Of a stretch of 49,437 nt of DNA, positions 2,928 through 39,868 are shown in pieces. The DNA is taken from positions 1 through 49,437 of the IMG/VR virus record IMGVR_UViG_3300029918_000007. One strand, 5' to 3'. A program made the position numbers and the translations under genes. This DNA comes from a virus. Under the pieces are notes generated by a model. That model saw only the letters and a program-made list of their open reading frames with translations. It was not told where the DNA came from and did no database searches. Positions within the stretch are counted from its first letter, which is position 1. Each line of letters begins with the position of its first letter.

Positions 2928-5684
2928 TTATTTCCAATTCCAGCATTTATTATTGAAGTCCCAGACCGTCTCCCCATGAAAAGCCTCCTCCTTACATTTC
3001 CATCTATCTCCTACTGACATTTCCATTCCTAAAGTATCACCAGTAGCTATTTTACATTCTTTAGTAAAGTAGTTCTTACAAACTTCAGGAAACCAATTAT
3101 CTTTCATAACATCTTTATGTACAAGATAATATGCAGCATCATGAACACTATTTACTGGTTTAATCCACTTCATCCAGACCCCTTCTTTAACTAGATAACG
3201 TTTCATAGTTACACATATATCCCACATAAACAATGCTAATTCACTAGCAGGTGGAAAAGCCAAACTTTCATTCTTCCAACCAGCCAATATTCTAAAGTCA
3301 TCACTATCTTCGAAATGGTATTTTAAACCTCTAGCATTCTCTATATACTTATATTCTTCTACTTGCTGCATACATTGCTTCCTAAACTCCATATATTGTG
3401 TATATTGCTCCCATGTCTTCAAAGCATATTCGATACGTTGAATAGGTAGATAAATGCCACTTTCTGCATAAATCTCTGCTTGAATAGGCATTGAGGCAGC
3501 TAATAGTTCTGAAGTGTATGATACTCTAAATGTAATAGACTTTGCTGACACATATTTAGAATAATCGTTTTTAGTTACATTTGGGTCTTGGAAATACTCT
3601 CTAGCTTTGGTTAAATGAAATCCACCACTAAGAATGTCATTTATATATTTAGGGTCTTTACTTAGGAATGCTAATATTCCGAGGTCGGCACTGGCTATGT
3701 CGATCTCAGCCCAATACCAATCAGGGTCCCCGGAATAGAATATATGTCTAAGATTACTTGGTATTAGATGATAATTCTTCTTTTGGTCATCTTTACTCAT
3801 TAAACTATAACCAGGCACAAATATATTAGGGATATTACTTAACACTTTGGAAGCTGGATTCTGTACATTAGGCTTGCTACTACTTCTAAAGTTATCCAAG
3901 CATTCATAAAAACTTGGGTGAATCTTGCCATCTTTACAAATAGCCGCCCAATATGAACTCTTTTTGGCATCCTCGTCAGCATCACCTTCCAGATCTGCTT
4001 CATCTATTTCTTCAAACTCAGTACCAGTTTTACACAAGAACTTAGTAGCAAATACTCCTACTCTAGTTAAATCTAATAGATTCTTAACTATAATATATTT
4101 ATCCTGTATTAAGTTATCTGGTTGTGGTTTTTCCAATTCCTTCTCTAGATCGAAACATATAGTACTTAATGATTTACTATTAGTACTAGGAGAATAATGC
4201 TTCTTTGTACCTGCTTTTTGTTGATCGTACCAAGCTCTGGGTTTAATCTTTCCTTTTTTAGTATAAAAGGCTGGGGCTAAACCGAGTACTTGATATAATA
4301 ACTTCTTCTTTTGAGGTGCACTAGCTGGATTAAAATCTGGGAAGATACCAGTTAATCTAGTTTTTAATATATCTTTAAGTTCTTCATATTTAGATACATA
4401 TTGATTAGTCATTTCTTCCATTTTCACCAAATCTATAGGTATCCCAGCTAACTCCAAATCCATGAAATAATGAGTTAAAGGTAGATATGTATTATAAAAG
4501 TAAGTTCTTACTTTCTCTGGTAACTTATCCATACTTTCCTTCATAGCTAAACAAGCAGTCCTATGAGCTACTGCATCACCACCACAATACTCATAAAAGA
4601 AATCAGGCTCTAATAACTTTAATTGGGCTAACTCTTCCCACTTCAACCCATGCTTTTTGAGGAGATCTGGCATCTCTTTATAATAAGGTTTATAGTTAGT
4701 GAAGTACTTAATACCAGTTTCTAGACCTTTAGGATACCTACTATCTAAGAATCCACAAGCTTTCATACCATCAAAGAATAGAGTGTCATCAGATAAATTA
4801 AACCCTCTCAATTTAAGCCTTTCATCATCAACTCTAATATTCCAACCCATTCTTTGTACTTGTGGATGTTCTAATAATGGCTTTACTGTATCAAGTAATT
4901 CTTTATTCTCAGTTACACCATCTTTTGAAATATCCAATACAATAGCTACATTAGGTTCACAAGAATACTGAAAAGTATACATGACCTCATCATCAGTCAT
5001 CTTCTTCCCCTTCCATTCTCCATCATAACCTACTAGGAATGCCTTCTTATCTATATATTCTTGTATAATAACTTTACTTAATTCAGGGTCATCTACTACT
5101 AGTTTATCATATCTAGTATAATCCAGCTTATCTTCTATAAATCTTTTAGCTAGAGTAAACACCTCTCTAAATGCAGACCTTAGTGTAGGGTCCTGGCCAA
5201 CTATCATTCCAGGAGAATAGTTAGGTAACAGCTTGCAGTCATAAGGACAATCTATAATATTGCCTAAATAACTAGTAACCTTGCTTTTCTCTTTCTTAAT
5301 CCTTTTAAACGGCTCAGCTCCTAAAGTAAGGATCAATCTAGGTTTAACTGTTTTAATCTCAAAATCCAGTACACCGCTACATTGTTCAATCATCTGTTTA
5401 GTAGGCTTTCCGGCTGAACCTACATCAAATTTAACCATAGCAGTTAAATAATAATCAGATTCTTGAAAGCCGGCCAAATCCAGGGCTGCTTTAAGTTCAT
5501 CACCATTATCCCCAGCTAATAAGTTACCAGTTTGTAGAGCATCATAACTAGGATAACTAAGAACTAACATCAACTTGGCTTCGTGATCTCCTGAAGGTTG
5601 TATAAATGAAGCTCCAGCTACTCTATATGTATTATATTCTGTTAAAAATTCATCAATTGTCATCATAATTTTATCTGTATCCAT
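2928..5684 (-). CDS. polA: DNA polymerase A with N-terminal UDG-like domain
   Basis: This is a 918-residue family A replicative polymerase. Residues about 25-185 look like a family 4-type uracil-DNA glycosylase domain (VLSYPSY, LAGDNGDELKAAL, ILTLGAEPFK, LPNYSPG); a UDG-like domain fused to PolA is known in some phages. Next comes a 3'-5' exonuclease with Exo I DGEW, Exo II GWNIRVDDE and Exo III YEYCGGD, so proofreading should be active. The polymerase domain has motif A AEIDIASADLG, motif B K-x3-F-x3-Y (AKSITFRVSY) and motif C VHDA. Motif C keeps the catalytic Asp, but the usual HDE is HDA. The start overlaps the upstream gene by 22 bases. Confidence 0.9.
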   Translation of the reverse strand: MDTDKIMMTIDEFLTEYNTYRVAGASFIQPSGDHEAKLMLVLSYPSYDALQTGNLLAGDNGDELKAALDLAGFQESDYYLTAMVKFDVGSAGKPTKQMIEQCSGVLDFEIKTVKPRLILTLGAEPFKRIKKEKSKVTSYLGNIIDCPYDCKLLPNYSPGMIVGQDPTLRSAFREVFTLAKRFIEDKLDYTRYDKLVVDDPELSKVIIQEYIDKKAFLVGYDGEWKGKKMTDDEVMYTFQYSCEPNVAIVLDISKDGVTENKELLDTVKPLLEHPQVQRMGWNIRVDDERLKLRGFNLSDDTLFFDGMKACGFLDSRYPKGLETGIKYFTNYKPYYKEMPDLLKKHGLKWEELAQLKLLEPDFFYEYCGGDAVAHRTACLAMKESMDKLPEKVRTYFYNTYLPLTHYFMDLELAGIPIDLVKMEEMTNQYVSKYEELKDILKTRLTGIFPDFNPASAPQKKKLLYQVLGLAPAFYTKKGKIKPRAWYDQQKAGTKKHYSPSTNSKSLSTICFDLEKELEKPQPDNLIQDKYIIVKNLLDLTRVGVFATKFLCKTGTEFEEIDEADLEGDADEDAKKSSYWAAICKDGKIHPSFYECLDNFRSSSKPNVQNPASKVLSNIPNIFVPGYSLMSKDDQKKNYHLIPSNLRHIFYSGDPDWYWAEIDIASADLGILAFLSKDPKYINDILSGGFHLTKAREYFQDPNVTKNDYSKYVSAKSITFRVSYTSELLAASMPIQAEIYAESGIYLPIQRIEYALKTWEQYTQYMEFRKQCMQQVEEYKYIENARGLKYHFEDSDDFRILAGWKNESLAFPPASELALFMWDICVTMKRYLVKEGVWMKWIKPVNSVHDAAYYLVHKDVMKDNWFPEVCKNYFTKECKIATGDTLGMEMSVGDRWKCKEEAFHGETVWDFNNKCWNWK

Positions 5685-6087: not shown

Positions 6088-8499
6088 TTAATAAGTGACT
6101 GGTCTAATACCAGTACGATCTACTTCTGTCATGGTAGAATTTTGATATGGTAAGTCATTAGTAACTAACGTGGATGTTACTGTCATATATTCAAATTCAG
6201 TCTTAAGAGTTATTTTAAAGTCAGCTGAATGTCTTATTTTTAAAGGAAACAAGTTTATCTCATCACTTTTATCACCAGCTCTGCCTACACCTAAAACCAA
6301 GTCTGGCTTATTTACTATTGCTTTATAACCTTGAATTTCATCTATAGTAAAATATGCCCTAGTCTTGCCTTTAGCTTGATGCTGTACCCACAATACAAAT
6401 CCTTTACCACCTATTTGTTTATGTGATAATTGGTCTAACTCAGCTGCAGTCATACCTTCAATCTCATAAGTCTGCATATTCTTTCTTATAGGTGCATCTG
6501 GAGTTATGAATTGTAATTGATCTAGCATTACTAGTTCTGGTATAAAACCAGTTTCTTCATAGTTTTGTTTTAACAATTCATATAGCAGATTAGGAGTTAT
6601 AGCACCATCAATCCCCTTTAAACCCATTAAACAGAGATTATCTTTTAAAAATTTTATTTTCTCAGTAGTTAATTCTTCATTAAACTTTGATTCCAATTCT
6701 ATATTAGCACTACCTTGTCTTAATTGTCTATATGGTATTCTAAATACTCTGGAATAGAATCTTTGGCTTAAATCATCTTCATGCTCTTCACAAGATATAT
6801 AAACCGCCTTTCTACCCATTTCCGCAGATATACCCACCATATTAGTACCTACAGCTGTATTATGTGTTACTGTAAAATCCCCCAAAAGATAAAGATGATT
6901 ACCTGATAATTCAAAACCATAATAATCTCTATCGTTTATAGGCTCAACAGTAAAACCAACATGTAATACATCTTTAATCTGCTGTCTTATCCCAGCCCGC
7001 TTTCTAATAACTTTACATGGAATTTTATTTACGTGTCCACTTATATTAACTCTATATACTTTACATCTGTATATTGATCCATCCTCTCTTTTCATAGTAG
7101 CTATTTTAGGATAACTATATGCTGCGAACCCTAAACTTCTAGCTAAATAAAGAATATCTTGACTCAAACCTTCATACTTAGTTACAACTTCATAAAAGTT
7201 ATGATGTAGATATCCATCAGTATCTATAATACCAGCTAATAACTGCAACCTATTACTTTCAGAGTTAATCAAATAATCACTAGGAATTCTCTTTTGATTA
7301 TTACCATTAGCTCTTTTTATTTCATTACGAAATATATTTATTTCAGGTTTTCTACTAAAACAATAAGTAATATCATACTGTCTGACCTTATATTTATTGA
7401 TTTTAGCCCATTCCATCATTACACTAATAATTTCTGGATCAGTATTTGTAATCTTCGGTGCTGCTCGTGTTCCATCTCCTATCCAACAACCGAAGATATA
7501 CGGGTCCATATTCAAAGGTTTAACAGGATAATCAACACCAATTCGATATAATTTAAGACAATCTTTCTTAGTTCTTATTAGAGCACAATAATCCTTAACT
7601 GTCATATTAACTATATTTCCCTTACCATATTGATAACCAAAACCACATTGAGTATTACATACTAAACTAAGGATATGAGATTCATTACAAGTCCAAGGTT
7701 CCCCCTTAACAGGAATTACCTTATACATTTGCTCACTACCCCTAGCCAAACTAAGTACTTCTCTAGATGTTGAATCATTACCCATTAGTAATTCACCCAC
7801 TTTAATATCTTCAACATTCTTTATTGAACCGTCATACATTAATATTTTAGTACCTTTTCCATGACATTTACCCCCACCTGAAAATCCTAGCAACATAGCA
7901 TATTCACTAGATAATAGTCCACCATCCAACTTCTCATCCAGCTTACTTAAACCTGTACCTATCATACTACTCTTAGTCTTGAATATGATACTACTAAAAG
8001 GATTCATCACCCTAGGCCTGCTCATAGGAGAATCGCCAGCCAAATCTAAATTGAGTTTATTTAATTCACTGGTTAAGGTATGAACATCATCCCTATACTT
8101 ATTAATAAGCTTCTGTGCCCTCCTATTCTTTAGGAAAGGTAACAATCTACTATCAAAGAACTCAGGACTCTCCAACAACCTATCTGCATTATAGAAGTAC
8201 TCAAATAGTTCAAGTGTATTATCTTTTAAACTATCAATTAAAGTTCCATCCTCAAATTTATGTTTTAAGCCATCCAACAATGTATTAGCTGGCACTGGTC
8301 TAACATCTATACTATTAATGATATTTACCAGCTCTTTATATACTTGATTACCATAAGTATCATCCAATACTAAATCATCTCCTACAATATTCAATTGTTT
8401 AGCTTTATTACTCACTTCCGGAGATAATAGCATATGCCTAATCAACAATTCCGAAAAATCAGCATCGGTTAAAGGCTCAGTAAAATTTGTATCATTCAT
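6088..8499 (-). CDS. dnaB: Replicative DNA helicase DnaB with in-frame intein
   Basis: This 803-residue precursor encodes a DnaB-type hexameric helicase of about 467 residues after splicing. The N-terminal domain (1-150) precedes a linker and the RecA-like domain (GTGLSKLDEKLDGGLLSSEY). The Walker A motif reads GFSGGGK at 205-211 and is interrupted there. It resumes as TAVGTNMVG after residue 547, so the spliced motif is GFSGGGKT. Walker B is LVMLDQLQFI. The gene overlaps the upstream gene by four bases (ATGA) and belongs with the primase, SF2 helicase and PolA genes of this operon. It should unwind DNA at the phage fork. Confidence 0.9.
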   Translation of the reverse strand: MNDTNFTEPLTDADFSELLIRHMLLSPEVSNKAKQLNIVGDDLVLDDTYGNQVYKELVNIINSIDVRPVPANTLLDGLKHKFEDGTLIDSLKDNTLELFEYFYNADRLLESPEFFDSRLLPFLKNRRAQKLINKYRDDVHTLTSELNKLNLDLAGDSPMSRPRVMNPFSSIIFKTKSSMIGTGLSKLDEKLDGGLLSSEYAMLLGFSGGGKCHGKGTKILMYDGSIKNVEDIKVGELLMGNDSTSREVLSLARGSEQMYKVIPVKGEPWTCNESHILSLVCNTQCGFGYQYGKGNIVNMTVKDYCALIRTKKDCLKLYRIGVDYPVKPLNMDPYIFGCWIGDGTRAAPKITNTDPEIISVMMEWAKINKYKVRQYDITYCFSRKPEINIFRNEIKRANGNNQKRIPSDYLINSESNRLQLLAGIIDTDGYLHHNFYEVVTKYEGLSQDILYLARSLGFAAYSYPKIATMKREDGSIYRCKVYRVNISGHVNKIPCKVIRKRAGIRQQIKDVLHVGFTVEPINDRDYYGFELSGNHLYLLGDFTVTHNTAVGTNMVGISAEMGRKAVYISCEEHEDDLSQRFYSRVFRIPYRQLRQGSANIELESKFNEELTTEKIKFLKDNLCLMGLKGIDGAITPNLLYELLKQNYEETGFIPELVMLDQLQFITPDAPIRKNMQTYEIEGMTAAELDQLSHKQIGGKGFVLWVQHQAKGKTRAYFTIDEIQGYKAIVNKPDLVLGVGRAGDKSDEINLFPLKIRHSADFKITLKTEFEYMTVTSTLVTNDLPYQNSTMTEVDRTGIRPVTY
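6859..7866 (-). mobile_element. Intein with LAGLIDADG homing endonuclease in DnaB
   Basis: This 336-residue protein-splicing element occupies residues 212-547 of the DnaB precursor. It begins with Cys (CHGKGTKILMYDGS), ends with the His-Asn pair (TVTHN), and is followed by Thr as the +1 extein nucleophile. Block B is probably the CNESH stretch. Two LAGLIDADG helices are visible, IFGCWIGDGT and LLAGIIDTDGYL, both with the acidic residue, so the endonuclease may be active. The insertion is exactly after the Walker A lysine. All splice-junction residues look intact. Confidence 0.9.
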
Positions 8500-14228: not shown

Positions 14229-14624
14229 TCATAAATAAGGGTCTAATAGTCTATCTCTACAATCTATAAACGGTCTAACTTCTGGTATATATTTCTTATC
14301 ATCAATCCAATCACCATGATAACTACAACTACTACAACTACTACAATCAATACAACTTCTACAATTACTACAATCTCTACAACTACTACAATTAATACAA
14401 CTACTACAATAAATACAATCTCTACAACTACTACAATCACTACAATTATTACAATAGCTACAATCTCTACAATAACTACAATCAGTACAATCACTACAAC
14501 CTATACAATCACTACAATTACTACAATTAGTTAGAGTAGGTGAATAGATAGTAGCTGCTTCTTCAGTATTCCAACTATTATTGTTTTCATCATACCATCT
14601 ATTATCTCTTTTTGTTATTGTCAT
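14229..14624 (-). CDS. Cys-x-x repeat protein 1
   Basis: This 131-residue protein has a conserved N-terminus (ITKRDNRWYDENNNSW, then YSPTLTNC). After it, 23 cysteines are spaced exactly every third residue over about 67 residues, for example CSDCIGCSDCTDCSYC. The two residues between cysteines are mostly Ser, Asp, Asn, Tyr, Arg or Ile. A short tail closes the protein. A regular C-x-x ladder suggests a beta-solenoid or a dense metal or Fe-S binder; neither is shown. A second copy lies at 16434-16880. The coding repeat is TGTAGT-rich and prone to slippage. Confidence 0.65.
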   Translation of the reverse strand: MTITKRDNRWYDENNNSWNTEEAATIYSPTLTNCSNCSDCIGCSDCTDCSYCRDCSYCNNCSDCSSCRDCIYCSSCINCSSCRDCSNCRSCIDCSSCSSCSYHGDWIDDKKYIPEVRPFIDCRDRLLDPYL

Positions 14625-16433: not shown

Positions 16434-16880
16434 CTACAAATCTGGTTCCAGTTTTCTATCATTAATATCTATTTCCACCCTAATAGTTGGTTCTTGTCTA
16501 TCCTTAAATTGGGCTGCAAAACTTATCTTATTACTCAGATCATAAATTGATTCACAGTAACTACAATCTCTACAATACCTACAACTAATACAATCTCTAC
16601 AATCATTACAATCAACACAATAACTACAACTACTACAATTAATACAGCGACTACAATTATTACAACTACTACAATTACTACAACCACTACAATAACTACA
16701 ATCACTACAACTAATACAACTAATACAATGACTACAATAACTACAATTAATACAATCACTACAATCTCTACACCATATACAATTAGTTAGGGTAGGTGAG
16801 TATAGAGTAGCTGATTCTTCAGTTATCCAACTATTATTATTTTCGTCATACCATCTATTACCTCTTTTAGTTATTTTCAT
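16434..16880 (-). CDS. Cys-x-x repeat protein 2
   Basis: This 148-residue paralogue of the 14229-14624 protein keeps the same head (ITKRGNRWYDENNNSW, then YSPTLTNC). It has 26 cysteines spaced every third residue, for example CSHCISCISCSDCSYC. The tail differs from copy 1 (FAAQFKDRQEPTIRVEID). It lies between a terminator hairpin and sbcD, while the other copy lies just before sbcC, so the two copies each precede one SbcCD partner. Function is unknown; metal binding or a beta-solenoid fold is inference. Confidence 0.65.
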   Translation of the reverse strand: MKITKRGNRWYDENNNSWITEESATLYSPTLTNCIWCRDCSDCINCSYCSHCISCISCSDCSYCSGCSNCSSCNNCSRCINCSSCSYCVDCNDCRDCISCRYCRDCSYCESIYDLSNKISFAAQFKDRQEPTIRVEIDINDRKLEPDL

Positions 16881-36657: not shown

Positions 36658-37398
36658 ATGAACTATAAATTAGGACGTAATAAGGCTGTATTTGATAAGA
36701 GGGCGCTTAAACTAGAAAAGTATTTAGCTCCTACACTAATACCACCAACTTCTATTAATTGGTGGGCTAAAATAGGTAATAACCCTTATCAGATGTTTCT
36801 CAATGATAGTCTAGGAATTTGTACTTGTGCTGCTGCCGCTCACTATATTATGAACTGGACTGCAAATAGTTCTACACTCATCACACCTACTAATGATGAT
36901 GTATTAAGAGCCTATGAAGCAATTACTGGCTATACTCCTAATAATCCTGCTACTGATAATGGAGCAGTTGAACTTGAGGTATTGAAGTACTGGCAAACTA
37001 CAGGTATTGCTAATCATAAGATAGGGGCATTCGTAAGTGTTAATCCTAAGAATATACTTCATCTAAAAATAGCTATCTGGTTATTTGGAGGGGTTTATAC
37101 TGGGGTTGATTTGACTGAGGATGATATGAATGCTGTGGAAAGTGGCATAACTACCTGGCAATATACTACTGGGAATATAATTGGAGGACATGCCATACCA
37201 TCATTTTCATTTTCAGAGAATACTTTTGAATATATTACTTGGGGTGCTGTACAATCCGCTACTTATGATTGGGTGACTAATAGGACTGAGGAAGCTTATG
37301 CATTGATTAGTCAGGATTGGATTAATAATACTGGTTTATCTCCTTCCGGGTTTAATATGGATCAATTAGTAGCTGACCTTATACAAGTACAGAATTAA
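36658..37398 (+). CDS. Papain-like cysteine protease-like protein
   Basis: This 246-residue protein looks like a papain-fold enzyme. A nucleophile-like block FLNDSLGICTCAAAAHY (residues about 48-63) precedes a His block GGHAIPSFSF and a downstream TWGAVQSATYDW, in the Cys-His-(Asn) order of C1/C39-type peptidases. Similar proteins are common in phages with unknown substrates. It is the first gene of a two-gene unit with the RNA polymerase beta fragment, one base apart, and should be expressed from the near-leaderless promoter. Confidence 0.55.
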   Translation: MNYKLGRNKAVFDKRALKLEKYLAPTLIPPTSINWWAKIGNNPYQMFLNDSLGICTCAAAAHYIMNWTANSSTLITPTNDDVLRAYEAITGYTPNNPATDNGAVELEVLKYWQTTGIANHKIGAFVSVNPKNILHLKIAIWLFGGVYTGVDLTEDDMNAVESGITTWQYTTGNIIGGHAIPSFSFSENTFEYITWGAVQSATYDWVTNRTEEAYALISQDWINNTGLSPSGFNMDQLVADLIQVQN

Positions 37399-37399
37399 T

Positions 37400-38086
37400 A
37401 TGTTAACTAGAACCGAGAAACTAACTAAATTTAAGGAATGGTTAAATCATACCTCCCTAGATAAAGATATTGTTAAGAATAATATTGGAGTAGATGAGGA
37501 TAAAATAAGTCCCCAAGTCTTATTAGCTAGTTCAGCAAAATTAATTAAGATTAATAAAGGTGAGGTTGAAGGTGATGATCGAGATAACCTTAAATTCTCC
37601 AAATTTATGGGACTAGAGGATTTTATAGCCGACCATATAAATAAGGATGCAGGTAAAATACAACAAAAAGCAGCTTATAAAATGCAAATGAAAAAGAATC
37701 TTAACTGGCTTACTCCTGGTTTCTTCTCTCAGCAAGTCAGGTCGGTTATTGTAGGAAATCCTTTAGCTAATAACGTTGAAGGTATTAATCCATTAGAACA
37801 CTTTGATAATAGTCATAAAGTAACTAAGATGGGGCAGGGAGGAATTGTATCAGAGTCAGCAATACCAGATGAATCTAGAAATGTAAGTCCTTCTAGTTTT
37901 GGCTTTTATGATCCCGTTCATATTGCAGAAAACACGAAGATAGGTGTTACTAATTATATAAATCAAAATGTAGCTAAAGGAGCAGATTGTAATTTATATA
38001 GGATTATGAAGGATAAGCACGGAAAACTTAAATGGATGAGTCACAAAGAAATTCTAGATAAACAAGTATTAATCCCTGAATACTAA
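37400..38086 (+). CDS. RNA polymerase beta fragment (fork/rifampicin region)
   Basis: This 228-residue protein aligns to about residues 440-580 of E. coli RpoB by eye. DDRDNLKFSKFMGLEDF fits the DDIDHLGNRRV region. NPLEHFDNSHKVTKMGQGG aligns ungapped with NPLSEITHKRRISALGPGG, and SFGFYDPVHIAENTKIG fits HYGRVCPIETPEGPNIG. Key pocket positions differ (H526 to N, R529 to K, S531 to T). It is a complete gene with its own start and stop, so the phage probably has a split beta subunit, as phiKZ-like phages do. The remaining parts are outside the window. Confidence 0.8.
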   Translation: MLTRTEKLTKFKEWLNHTSLDKDIVKNNIGVDEDKISPQVLLASSAKLIKINKGEVEGDDRDNLKFSKFMGLEDFIADHINKDAGKIQQKAAYKMQMKKNLNWLTPGFFSQQVRSVIVGNPLANNVEGINPLEHFDNSHKVTKMGQGGIVSESAIPDESRNVSPSSFGFYDPVHIAENTKIGVTNYINQNVAKGADCNLYRIMKDKHGKLKWMSHKEILDKQVLIPEY

Positions 38087-38104: not shown

Positions 38105-39868
38105 TTAAACATTCGCCAATAATTTAGATTTTCGAACCGGAAATCTACTTATAAATTTCTTATTAATCACACCTTCAACAAATGGGTTATTGTTGATATT
38201 ACTGTCTAAAGCCAAGGCTGCTTCTAATACATTTACACTATAAATAATAGGTGGGGCATTAGTTGAAGCTGTATCAATTGCGGTAATAGATTCTAATACA
38301 CTAGCTAGAGTTAATAGTGTGGCATCAGTATTATCTATAGCTGAGGCACTTTCAGACTCACTATTTATAGAACTTATAATAGCTGATAAACTATCCAAGG
38401 CTGAAGCTGTTTCAGTAATAGAAGTATTGAATAGTACTGAAGCTGAACTAGAATCACTTGCACTACCTGACTCTGTAATAGAACTTGTTAATAAATCATT
38501 AGCTGTAGGAGTATCATTAGCTGAGACTGACTCTGATATACTAGCTAATAGTGTAGAATTAGCTGTAGGGCTGTCTAGGGCTGTTCCTGACTCATTTATA
38601 CTAACTTGATAAGTAGCAGTTGAGCTAGGACTATCAGAAGCACTGCCTGACTCCGTAATAGAAGCTGCTAATAAATCATTGGCTGAAGGATTGTCATTAG
38701 CTGAGACTGACTCTGATATAGTTACACTATAATTAGCAGTAGAACTAGGAGTATCAATTGTGGTAACTGATTCTGTGATAGAAGCTGCTAATAAATCATT
38801 GGCTGAAGGGTTATCTACTGCACTACCTGATTCTGTAGTAGAACATGCATATATAGCAGTAGAACTAGGATTATCCGTTGCTGTTCCTGATTCTGTTATA
38901 GTTACTAAATAACCACCAACTATACTATCTAGAGCTGAAGCTGATTCTGTTACACTAGCTTGTAGGGTAGAATTAGCTGAAGGAGAATCTGTTGCACTAC
39001 CAGATTCACTAATACTTACACTGTATTTAGCAGTAGATGAAGGACTATCAGAAGCACTAGCAGCTTCACTTACTGAACCTGCAAATATAGCATTAGCAGA
39101 AGGGTTATCAGAAGCACTAGCAGATTCAGTTACACTTCCTGCAAATAAAGCATTAGCACTAGGATTATCTGAAGCTGAACCACTTTCTGATACTGTTGCT
39201 GCTAATAAATCATTAGCTGAGGGTGACTCTGTAGCTGAAGCAGATTCAGATATAGTTACTAAATAACCGCCAGCTGGACTATCTAGAGCTGAAGCAGACT
39301 CAGTTATGGACCCTGCAAATGTAGCTGTTGAACTAGGACTATCTACTGCACTATTAGATTCACTAGTACTAGCTTGAAGAGTAGAATTAGCTGAAGGATT
39401 GTCAGTTGCTGTACCACTTTCTGAAGTACTTGCAGCAAATATAGCATTAACAGAAGGACTATCTACTGCACTACCTGATTCTGTAGTAGAACCTGGATAT
39501 ATAGCAGTAGAACTAGGAGTATCAGTAGCAGATGCAGATTCACTATCACTTGCTCCATATACAGCTATACTAGAAGGGCTATCTAGAGCTGAAGCTGATT
39601 CACTTACACTAACTAGATAAGTTTGAGAAGTAGGAATTGCTGTACCACCAGCAAATTGATTCTGAGCGAGATAAAAACCACCGAAAGTTACTGAAACTGT
39701 ACCTGCTAAATCAACTGAATCTGAAGCTGAAGCTGTTTCTGTTACGGAAACATTATATACTGCTATACCACTAACTGAATCAACTGCACTAGCTGCCTCA
39801 ATTACCCTATCTGGTAATGGAGGATCGCCACCAAAATAACCTTCTCCAAAGTATGAAGAGCCAAACAT
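38105..39868 (-). CDS. Tail-associated 20-residue repeat protein
   Basis: This 587-residue protein opens MFGSSYFGEGYFGGDPPLP and then contains roughly two dozen tandem repeats of about 20 residues (for example SESASALDSPSSTAIY). It closes with a short basic tail (RFPVRKSKLLANV). Each unit is Ser/Glu/Asp/Ala-rich and likely forms an extended or beta-repeat rod. The gene is the last of the tail block. The repeats are also near-identical at DNA level, so copy number may vary by recombination. Confidence 0.7.
   Translation of the reverse strand: MFGSSYFGEGYFGGDPPLPDRVIEAASAVDSVSGIAVYNVSVTETASASDSVDLAGTVSVTFGGFYLAQNQFAGGTAIPTSQTYLVSVSESASALDSPSSIAVYGASDSESASATDTPSSTAIYPGSTTESGSAVDSPSVNAIFAASTSESGTATDNPSANSTLQASTSESNSAVDSPSSTATFAGSITESASALDSPAGGYLVTISESASATESPSANDLLAATVSESGSASDNPSANALFAGSVTESASASDNPSANAIFAGSVSEAASASDSPSSTAKYSVSISESGSATDSPSANSTLQASVTESASALDSIVGGYLVTITESGTATDNPSSTAIYACSTTESGSAVDNPSANDLLAASITESVTTIDTPSSTANYSVTISESVSANDNPSANDLLAASITESGSASDSPSSTATYQVSINESGTALDSPTANSTLLASISESVSANDTPTANDLLTSSITESGSASDSSSASVLFNTSITETASALDSLSAIISSINSESESASAIDNTDATLLTLASVLESITAIDTASTNAPPIIYSVNVLEAALALDSNINNNPFVEGVINKKFISRFPVRKSKLLANV

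What the first reader, a model, noticed from the sequence alone, without database searches (positions are those of the whole stretch)
37400..38086. Stand-alone fragment of RNA polymerase beta
A complete 228-residue gene corresponds to the rifampicin-pocket/fork region of RpoB (about E. coli 440-580), with NPLEHFDNSHKVTKMGQGG and DPVHIAENTKIG in order. PhiKZ-like phages split their polymerase subunits, but here a single small piece sits alone, in one unit with a papain-like protein and away from the replication block. Substitutions at H526 (N), R529 (K) and S531 (T) suggest rifampicin insensitivity. A phage-encoded multisubunit polymerase is implied.
Basis: partly seen in the sequence, partly recalled or inferred. 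Interest (0 to 1): 0.8.

Follow-up and report, generated by a model that had tools for sequence, protein, structure and literature searches.

The report
Stand-alone fork piece of phage polymerase
A large phage carries its own cell-type RNA polymerase cut into separately encoded pieces, and this small gene is one of them: the fork part of the beta subunit, with the matching pieces found on longer contigs of the same phage.

Summary
Window 37400-38086 (+) encodes 228 residues matching the fork region of RNA polymerase beta (Pfam Rpb2_3, E 1.1e-5; E. coli beta 426-576). The window is a fragment: a 151-kb contig of the same phage (99.99-100% identical) and a 134-kb relative carry the rest: a 232-residue beta N-terminus, a beta C-terminus fused to the beta-prime N-terminus, and the beta-prime C-terminus, one copy each, tiling without overlap. 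A sigma-like protein is present. The fork stands alone in 8 of 78 loci (5 distinct sequences, one clade); in the other 70 it lies in a longer chain. Nearest relatives are fused, so the split looks derived; the family groups with Arash/D181-type polymerases, not AR9. In this phage the beta-prime Asp triad is interrupted by an intein-like element split over two ORFs, the junction identical in four contigs, so activity probably needs trans-splicing. Best reading: a phage RNA polymerase reassembled from pieces with new cut sites. Not shown: expression, assembly, activity, rifampicin response. The 'papain-like' neighbour is unsupported.

The parts
37400..38086 (+). stand-alone RNAP beta fork piece (228 aa); residues 60-228 correspond to E. 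coli beta about 444-657, the whole perhaps 375-657 (protrusion second half, fork, start of external domain; domain names recalled)
37778..37960 (+). Rpb2 domain 3 (fork) match
   Evidence: Pfam PF04565 residues 127-187; same place
37754..37840 (+). rifampicin-cluster-like stretch, residues 119-147 (L511 and G534 kept; S512A, Q513N, F514N, D516E, H526N, R529K, S531T, L533M relative to E. coli)
   Evidence: HMMER alignment; positions; position names recalled
36658..37398 (+). 246-aa neighbour on the same strand, one base upstream, unknown function (phrog_19005); probably not part of the polymerase: no such ORF upstream of the fork gene in L008 and L009

Best explanation
The gene encodes the fork/protrusion segment of the beta subunit of a phage-encoded, cell-type RNA polymerase. 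In this phage lineage the enzyme is made as separate chains: beta N-terminus (232 aa), fork piece (228 aa), beta C-terminus fused to beta-prime N-terminus (985 aa in the relative G004; two ORFs of 931 and 573 aa in this phage) and beta-prime C-terminus (636-779 aa). I infer that they assemble without covalent links into one active enzyme, the fork piece supplying the wall next to the active site, with a phage sigma-like factor for promoter recognition. The split arose by gene fission from a fused beta-beta-prime chain such as relatives still carry. In this phage the beta-prime Asp triad is interrupted by an intein-like element split over two ORFs, so I infer that protein trans-splicing restores it. 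Shown: homology, one copy of each piece in the contigs held, tiling, conservation. Inferred: assembly, splicing, activity, role of sigma, direction of the fission.
For: Homology. The window is 99.99-100% identical to G007:84234-133670 reversed. blastp with the polymerase chains of Arash and D181, independent of the profiles, finds the pieces in G007 and G004: beta N at Arash gp206 12-227, fork at 233-469 (D181 231-462), beta C/beta-prime N from 484, and beta-prime C with Arash gp216. Piece profiles (built in part from these same sequences) hit each piece once and cover beta N 5-227, fork 1-239, beta C 1-525, beta-prime N 2-519 (interrupted in G007), beta-prime C 1-605. A third lineage not used for the profiles, G008, repeats it: beta N, fork, fused beta C/beta-prime N and the start of beta-prime C. 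The beta N model (pLDDT 75.5) matches Mtb beta B1-B2 domains (Foldseek E 3e-11, TM 0.31 by query length). Catalytic residues: DNDGD in G004, DTDGD in G008, the two beta lysines GDK-7-KG in G004, G007 and G008, SKHxGG at the trigger loop in G004 and G007 (roles of these motifs recalled). pN 0.10-0.36 against pS 0.69-0.94 in 10 of 10 pairs. One clade, SH-aLRT 100, quick tree; with fused L041 and L042 at 100/99. Sigma-70 region 3, E 1.3e-6, 28.8 bits against 25.3, in a 213-aa protein of G007.
Against: No expression, complex or activity data. In this very phage the beta-prime gene is broken at the catalytic triad; if the halves do not trans-splice, the enzyme is dead. The intein's first block is not recognised (Intein_splicing below cut-off, profile positions 40-148 only). 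The fork gene lies 6 to 42 kb from the other pieces and they are on both strands, not in an operon. The fork model has moderate confidence and its full-length alignments have rmsd 18-19 A. Five shorter records with the fork gene (G001, G002, G003, G005, G006) show no Rpb2_6 or Rpb1_2, and three records with the core lack the fork gene; all are linear, probably fragments. The sigma-like protein of G004 is below the Pfam cut-offs.
Confidence: 0.85

Rival explanations
1. The fork protein is a free-standing decoy or regulator that binds host RNA polymerase (beta-prime or sigma) and shuts down or redirects host transcription.
For: It lies 6 kb or more from the other pieces, with the beta N gene on the other strand; many phages encode small host RNA polymerase binders (recalled).
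Against: The segment it carries is the one missing from the other pieces of the same genome, with no second copy in the contigs held, and the pattern recurs in G004 and G008. A decoy would not need to tile. Its best relatives are fork segments of phage polymerases, not of cellular beta.
Confidence: 0.06
2. Decaying remnant: the fork gene, or the whole polymerase, is being lost in this lineage.
For: The beta-prime gene of this phage is interrupted at the catalytic triad; the polymerase is in pieces.
Against: 10 of 10 pairwise comparisons show far fewer replacement than silent changes; matching C-terminal ends (IPE then Y, H or A, then stop) in five lineages; the relatives G004 and G008 keep an uninterrupted triad.
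Confidence: 0.05
3. The separate pieces are primordial subunits that never were one chain, as argued for jumbo phage polymerases (PMC7824862, passages read), not the result of fission.
For: The split clade sits on a long branch (2.39) and the root of the family is unsure (87/99).
Against: Split phages form one clade beside fused L041 and L042 (100/99) in a family in which the other 70 of 78 loci carry beta N and fork in one chain. Cut sites differ between Arash, D181 and this clade.
Confidence: 0.1

Closest known systems
Salmonella phage Arash gp206/gp216 and Vibrio phages D181/D148/D69 polymerase
   Same: Same RNA polymerase family with the beta C-terminus fused to the beta-prime N-terminus; fork piece 26.5-27.6% identical, fused core about 30% identical
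   Different: Arash has beta N, fork, beta C and beta-prime N in one 1525-aa chain plus a 606-aa beta-prime C chain; D181 has 514 + 1006 + 609. Here beta N and fork are two further genes on different strands
phiKZ/AR9-type jumbo phage virion and non-virion RNA polymerases
   Same: Cell-type polymerase encoded as several chains; beta in two (nvRNAP) or three (vRNAP) pieces (PMC7824862 passages; PMC7598289 abstract and one section)
   Different: Other cut sites; no beta-beta-prime fusion in what I read; two sets per genome and no sigma according to those papers; AR9 falls outside this family in the tree, on a long branch
mReC, multi-subunit-RNAP-encoding Caudovirales (Weinheimer and Aylward 2020, PMC7481178; first part and found passages read)
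   Same: Metagenomic tailed phages with a deep-branching cell-type polymerase
   Different: Their screen asked for beta and beta-prime matches of at least 800 aa with NADxDGD, which this phage would fail; the words split and intein do not occur in the main text
crAss-like and YonO single-chain polymerases
   Same: Both catalytic halves in one chain (as described in PMC7481178 and PMC7824862)
   Different: crAss polymerase was reported not to match the beta and beta-prime profiles (PMC7481178); the single-chain members here (frames of 2068-2161 aa) match this family's beta and beta-prime piece profiles in order

Membership tests
RNA polymerase beta (Rpb2), fork domain | Match to Rpb2 domain 3 above the curated cut-off | tested here: met
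   PF04565 26 bits against 21; Foldseek rows shown are RNAP
RNA polymerase beta (Rpb2), fork domain | Complete beta within one chain | tested here: not met
   228 aa, fork profile only; the other piece profiles find nothing in the window
Arash/D181-type fused beta-beta-prime phage polymerase family | beta C-terminus fused to beta-prime N-terminus | tested here: met
   G004 and G007 by Pfam (Rpb1_1 just below cut-off) and blastp; G008 by piece profiles
Arash/D181-type fused beta-beta-prime phage polymerase family | Groups with the family in a tree of the beta C region | tested here: met
   31-row tree: split clade with L041 and L042 at 100/99; family branch 87/99 against Salmonella, YerA41, Carin-5 and AR9, so not starred
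Arash/D181-type fused beta-beta-prime phage polymerase family | Three catalytic Asp of DxDxD in one chain | tested here: inconclusive
   Met in G004 and G008; interrupted by an intein-like element in this phage
phiKZ-type jumbo phage RNAP | Two polymerase sets per genome | tested here: inconclusive
   One copy of each piece in contigs of 151 and 134 kb, neither closed
phiKZ-type jumbo phage RNAP | Kinship to phiKZ/AR9 polymerase | tested here: inconclusive
   AR9 outside the family but on a long branch, support 87/99; phiKZ itself did not enter the tree; no phiKZ-type record among 8 with a fork match at E up to 1
phiKZ-type jumbo phage RNAP | No recognisable sigma factor (PMC7598289, PMC7824862) | tested here: not met
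   Sigma-like 213-aa protein in G007 over the Sigma70_r3 cut-off; 212-aa counterpart in G004 below it
mReC | NADxDGD in beta-prime | tested here: not met
   GADNDGD in G004, SLDTDGD in G008; AADYDGD in Arash
mReC | Major capsid protein of PF07068 | tested here: inconclusive
   0 of 5 records match, without any positive control
mReC | Falls in the mReC RNAP clade | not tested
   mReC sequences not at hand

The most novel reading that the evidence does not exclude
A five-ORF phage RNA polymerase: beta cut at two new places so that the fork is a subunit of its own, beta C fused to beta-prime, and the catalytic Asp triad of beta-prime itself divided between two genes (GAD on one, SDGD on the other) and restored only by a split intein, with a second intein in the trigger loop. 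Polymerase activity would then depend on trans-splicing at the active site and could be timed by it.
Probability: 0.45. Interest if true: 0.82.

Novelty: new variant of a known kind. Interest (0 to 1): 0.62.

Why it matters
Split phage polymerases are known, but whether the pieces are primordial or the result of fission is disputed (PMC7824862 and PMC7598289, passages). This family holds, side by side, single-chain (frames of 2068-2161 aa), two-, three- and four-piece versions of one enzyme, with the split clade beside fused relatives, so the order of events can be tested. The cut sites also show where beta can be broken and still, presumably, work. A screen that asks for beta and beta-prime matches of 800 aa or more with NADxDGD would miss such phages.

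Tried and rejected
phiKZ kinship: not supported by the tree, in which AR9 is the only jumbo phage of that type, on a long branch; phiKZ gp178 and gp71 were given to the profile search, but gp178 matched too short a stretch and gp71 not at all, so neither entered the tree. A phiKZ stretch fetched first held no annotated polymerase gene. Papain-like neighbour: no support. Promoters at the locus: 5 sites against 8.7 expected in shuffles, so nothing is claimed; the promoter-like TTGACA-17-TATTGT before the second beta-prime ORF was read by eye and not tested. Ribosomal frameshift joining the two beta-prime ORFs: rejected, because the second frame has a TAG after the first ORF's TGA. Assembly error: rejected, the junction is identical in four contigs (G007, L121, L122, L124): 6101 bp in three, 4079 bp in L122, which ends inside the element (L123 is the same record as G007). 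Bacterial genomes: a pattern-based scan found 1 weak match (25%, a metagenome-assembled contig). The mReC capsid test had no control. A regular expression for the beta lysines was wrong and was put right. No tRNA in the window.

Limits of the counts. The piece profiles were built from Arash, D181, G004 and G007, so their hits in these four are by construction; blastp is the independent evidence there. The fork tree used 77 of 78 loci (L098 left out, fork match too short). For the beta C tree 34 chains were given and 31 entered (phiKZ gp178, phiKZ gp71 and L098 dropped; for L098 I had picked a wrong ORF). In one search the label N+F+C+pNpart includes L075, whose chain is cut by a contig end, and 6 further loci are labelled cut; in all 70 the fork shares a frame with beta N. 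The 76 IMG/VR loci come from two patterns taken from six sequences, so distant members may be missed. Absence of the neighbour in L008 and L009 means that no like ORF stands upstream there; the rest of those phages was not searched for it. Literature: in the listings (capped lists; one search was far too broad) I saw no title or abstract start that reports a stand-alone beta fork gene or an intein in a phage beta-prime triad; the library is open-access only, and one of ten searches was unused.

Full report
Observation. ORF 37400-38086 (+) is complete, 228 aa, with the two quoted motifs in order. Pfam gives Rpb2 domain 3 over the cut-off; the PDB sequence search lists only RNAP beta, E. coli 426-576. 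Insensitivity to the drug is inference.

The window is a fragment. It is the whole of a linear 49,437-base virus record and is 99.99-100% identical to G007:84234-133670, reversed, of a 151,189-base contig. In window coordinates the beta N-terminal gene would lie at 51572-52270 (-), about 2.1 kb past the right end, the fused beta C/beta-prime gene at 73638-76433 (+), its second part at 76465-78186 (+) and the beta-prime C-terminus at 80516-82855 (+). Within the window the five piece profiles find only the fork.

The other pieces. Queries were the polymerase chains of Salmonella phage Arash (1525 + 606 aa) and Vibrio phage D181 (514 + 1006 + 609 aa). By blastp, G007 and the relative G004 (134,588 bases; fork 78% identical) each hold beta N (232 aa), fork (228/227 aa), beta C fused to beta-prime N (931 aa plus a second ORF of 573 aa in G007; 985 aa in G004) and beta-prime C (779/636 aa). 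Profiles built partly from these sequences find each once, covering the models without overlap. G008, the record of L040 (53% identical fork), was not used for the profiles and repeats the pattern: a fused frame of 1007 aa, beta N and fork as separate genes, and the start of beta-prime C. The beta N piece has no Pfam match, but its model (pLDDT 75.5) matches the beta B1-B2 domains of M. tuberculosis RNAP (E 3e-11). Catalytic parts: DNDGD (G004), DTDGD (G008), GDK-7-KG in all three, SKHxGG in G004 and G007; that these are the Mg-binding triad, the two beta lysines and the trigger loop is recalled. The canonical NADFDGD spelling matched none of 654 ORFs. Five shorter records with the fork gene have no Rpb2_6 or Rpb1_2, and three records with the core have no fork gene; all are linear and probably fragments. 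Two of the five (G003, G006) do hold beta N.

How general. Profiles run on 78 loci (76 IMG/VR loci plus Arash and D181): fork alone in 8 (5 distinct sequences; four of the 8 are identical to the window's protein); in the other 70 it shares a frame with beta N. Of these, 8 have beta and beta-prime whole in one frame of 2068-2161 aa, and 6 are cut by a contig end before their make-up is clear. The stand-alone genes form one clade (SH-aLRT 100, quick tree) and keep matching C-terminal ends. pN is 0.10-0.36 and pS 0.69-0.94 in 10 of 10 pairs (silent sites near saturation). In a tree of the beta C region the split phages group with fused L041 and L042 (100/99), and the family stands apart from Salmonella RpoB, YerA41, Carin-5 and AR9 (87/99; long branches). 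I read this as fission from a fused chain. The gene order is not fixed: the fork gene is 13.5 kb from beta N in G007 and 6-7 kb in L007, L008 and L009, always on opposite strands, also in G008.

The broken beta-prime gene. In this phage the first ORF ends GYGAD-SIVDYIIYREKIN-stop, and the second, which starts with its own ATG, ends with an intein-like C-terminus before SDGDQL. The second ORF matches LAGLIDADG_3 (8.3e-8) and, below cut-off, Intein_splicing (2.7e-6, profile 40-148). The junction is identical in four contigs. A second Hint-like module (Hom_end_hint 1e-6, Hint 4.4e-6, both just below cut-off) sits before SKHKGG of beta-prime C. I infer a split intein; the N-terminal block is not recognised, and splicing is not shown.

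Sigma. A 213-aa protein of G007 matches Sigma70_r3 over the cut-off (1.3e-6); its G004 counterpart is below it. blastp with the sigma factors of Arash and D181 found nothing of note. Its use by this polymerase is inference.

Mechanism and rivals. Complementary tiling, single copies and conservation favour an enzyme assembled from separate chains over a decoy of host polymerase or a remnant. The broken triad is the main evidence against activity in this phage.

Literature. Jumbo phage vRNAP/nvRNAP splits and the primordial-subunit view: PMC7598289 (abstract, one section) and PMC7824862 (passages). mReC: PMC7481178 (first part and passages). None describes these cut sites in what I read.

Noticed in passing
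L025 (G007 55485-60033, -); junction also in L121, L122, L124: Intein-like element in the beta-prime catalytic Asp triad, split over two ORFs with a promoter-like sequence between them (read by eye); junction identical in four contigs.
   Followed up: partly
G007 50816-53155 (L024): Hint-like module (just below Pfam cut-offs) in beta-prime C at the place of the trigger loop, absent in G004.
   Followed up: partly
L044, L050, L051, L052, L062, L068, L097, L098: Beta and beta-prime whole in one frame of 2068-2161 aa, matching this family's piece profiles in order.
   Followed up: partly
window 6088-8499 (-): DnaB-like helicase interrupted by an intein with homing endonuclease.
   Followed up: no
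window 2928-5684 (-): Family A DNA polymerase (Pfam match below cut-off, PHROG match strong) with an N-terminal uracil-DNA glycosylase domain.
   Followed up: no
window 14229-14624 and 16434-16880 (-): Two proteins made largely of short cysteine-rich repeats (CSDCIGCSDC and the like).
   Followed up: no
window 38105-39868 (-): 587-aa protein of low-complexity Ser/Ala/Asp-rich repeats, convergent with the fork gene.
   Followed up: no
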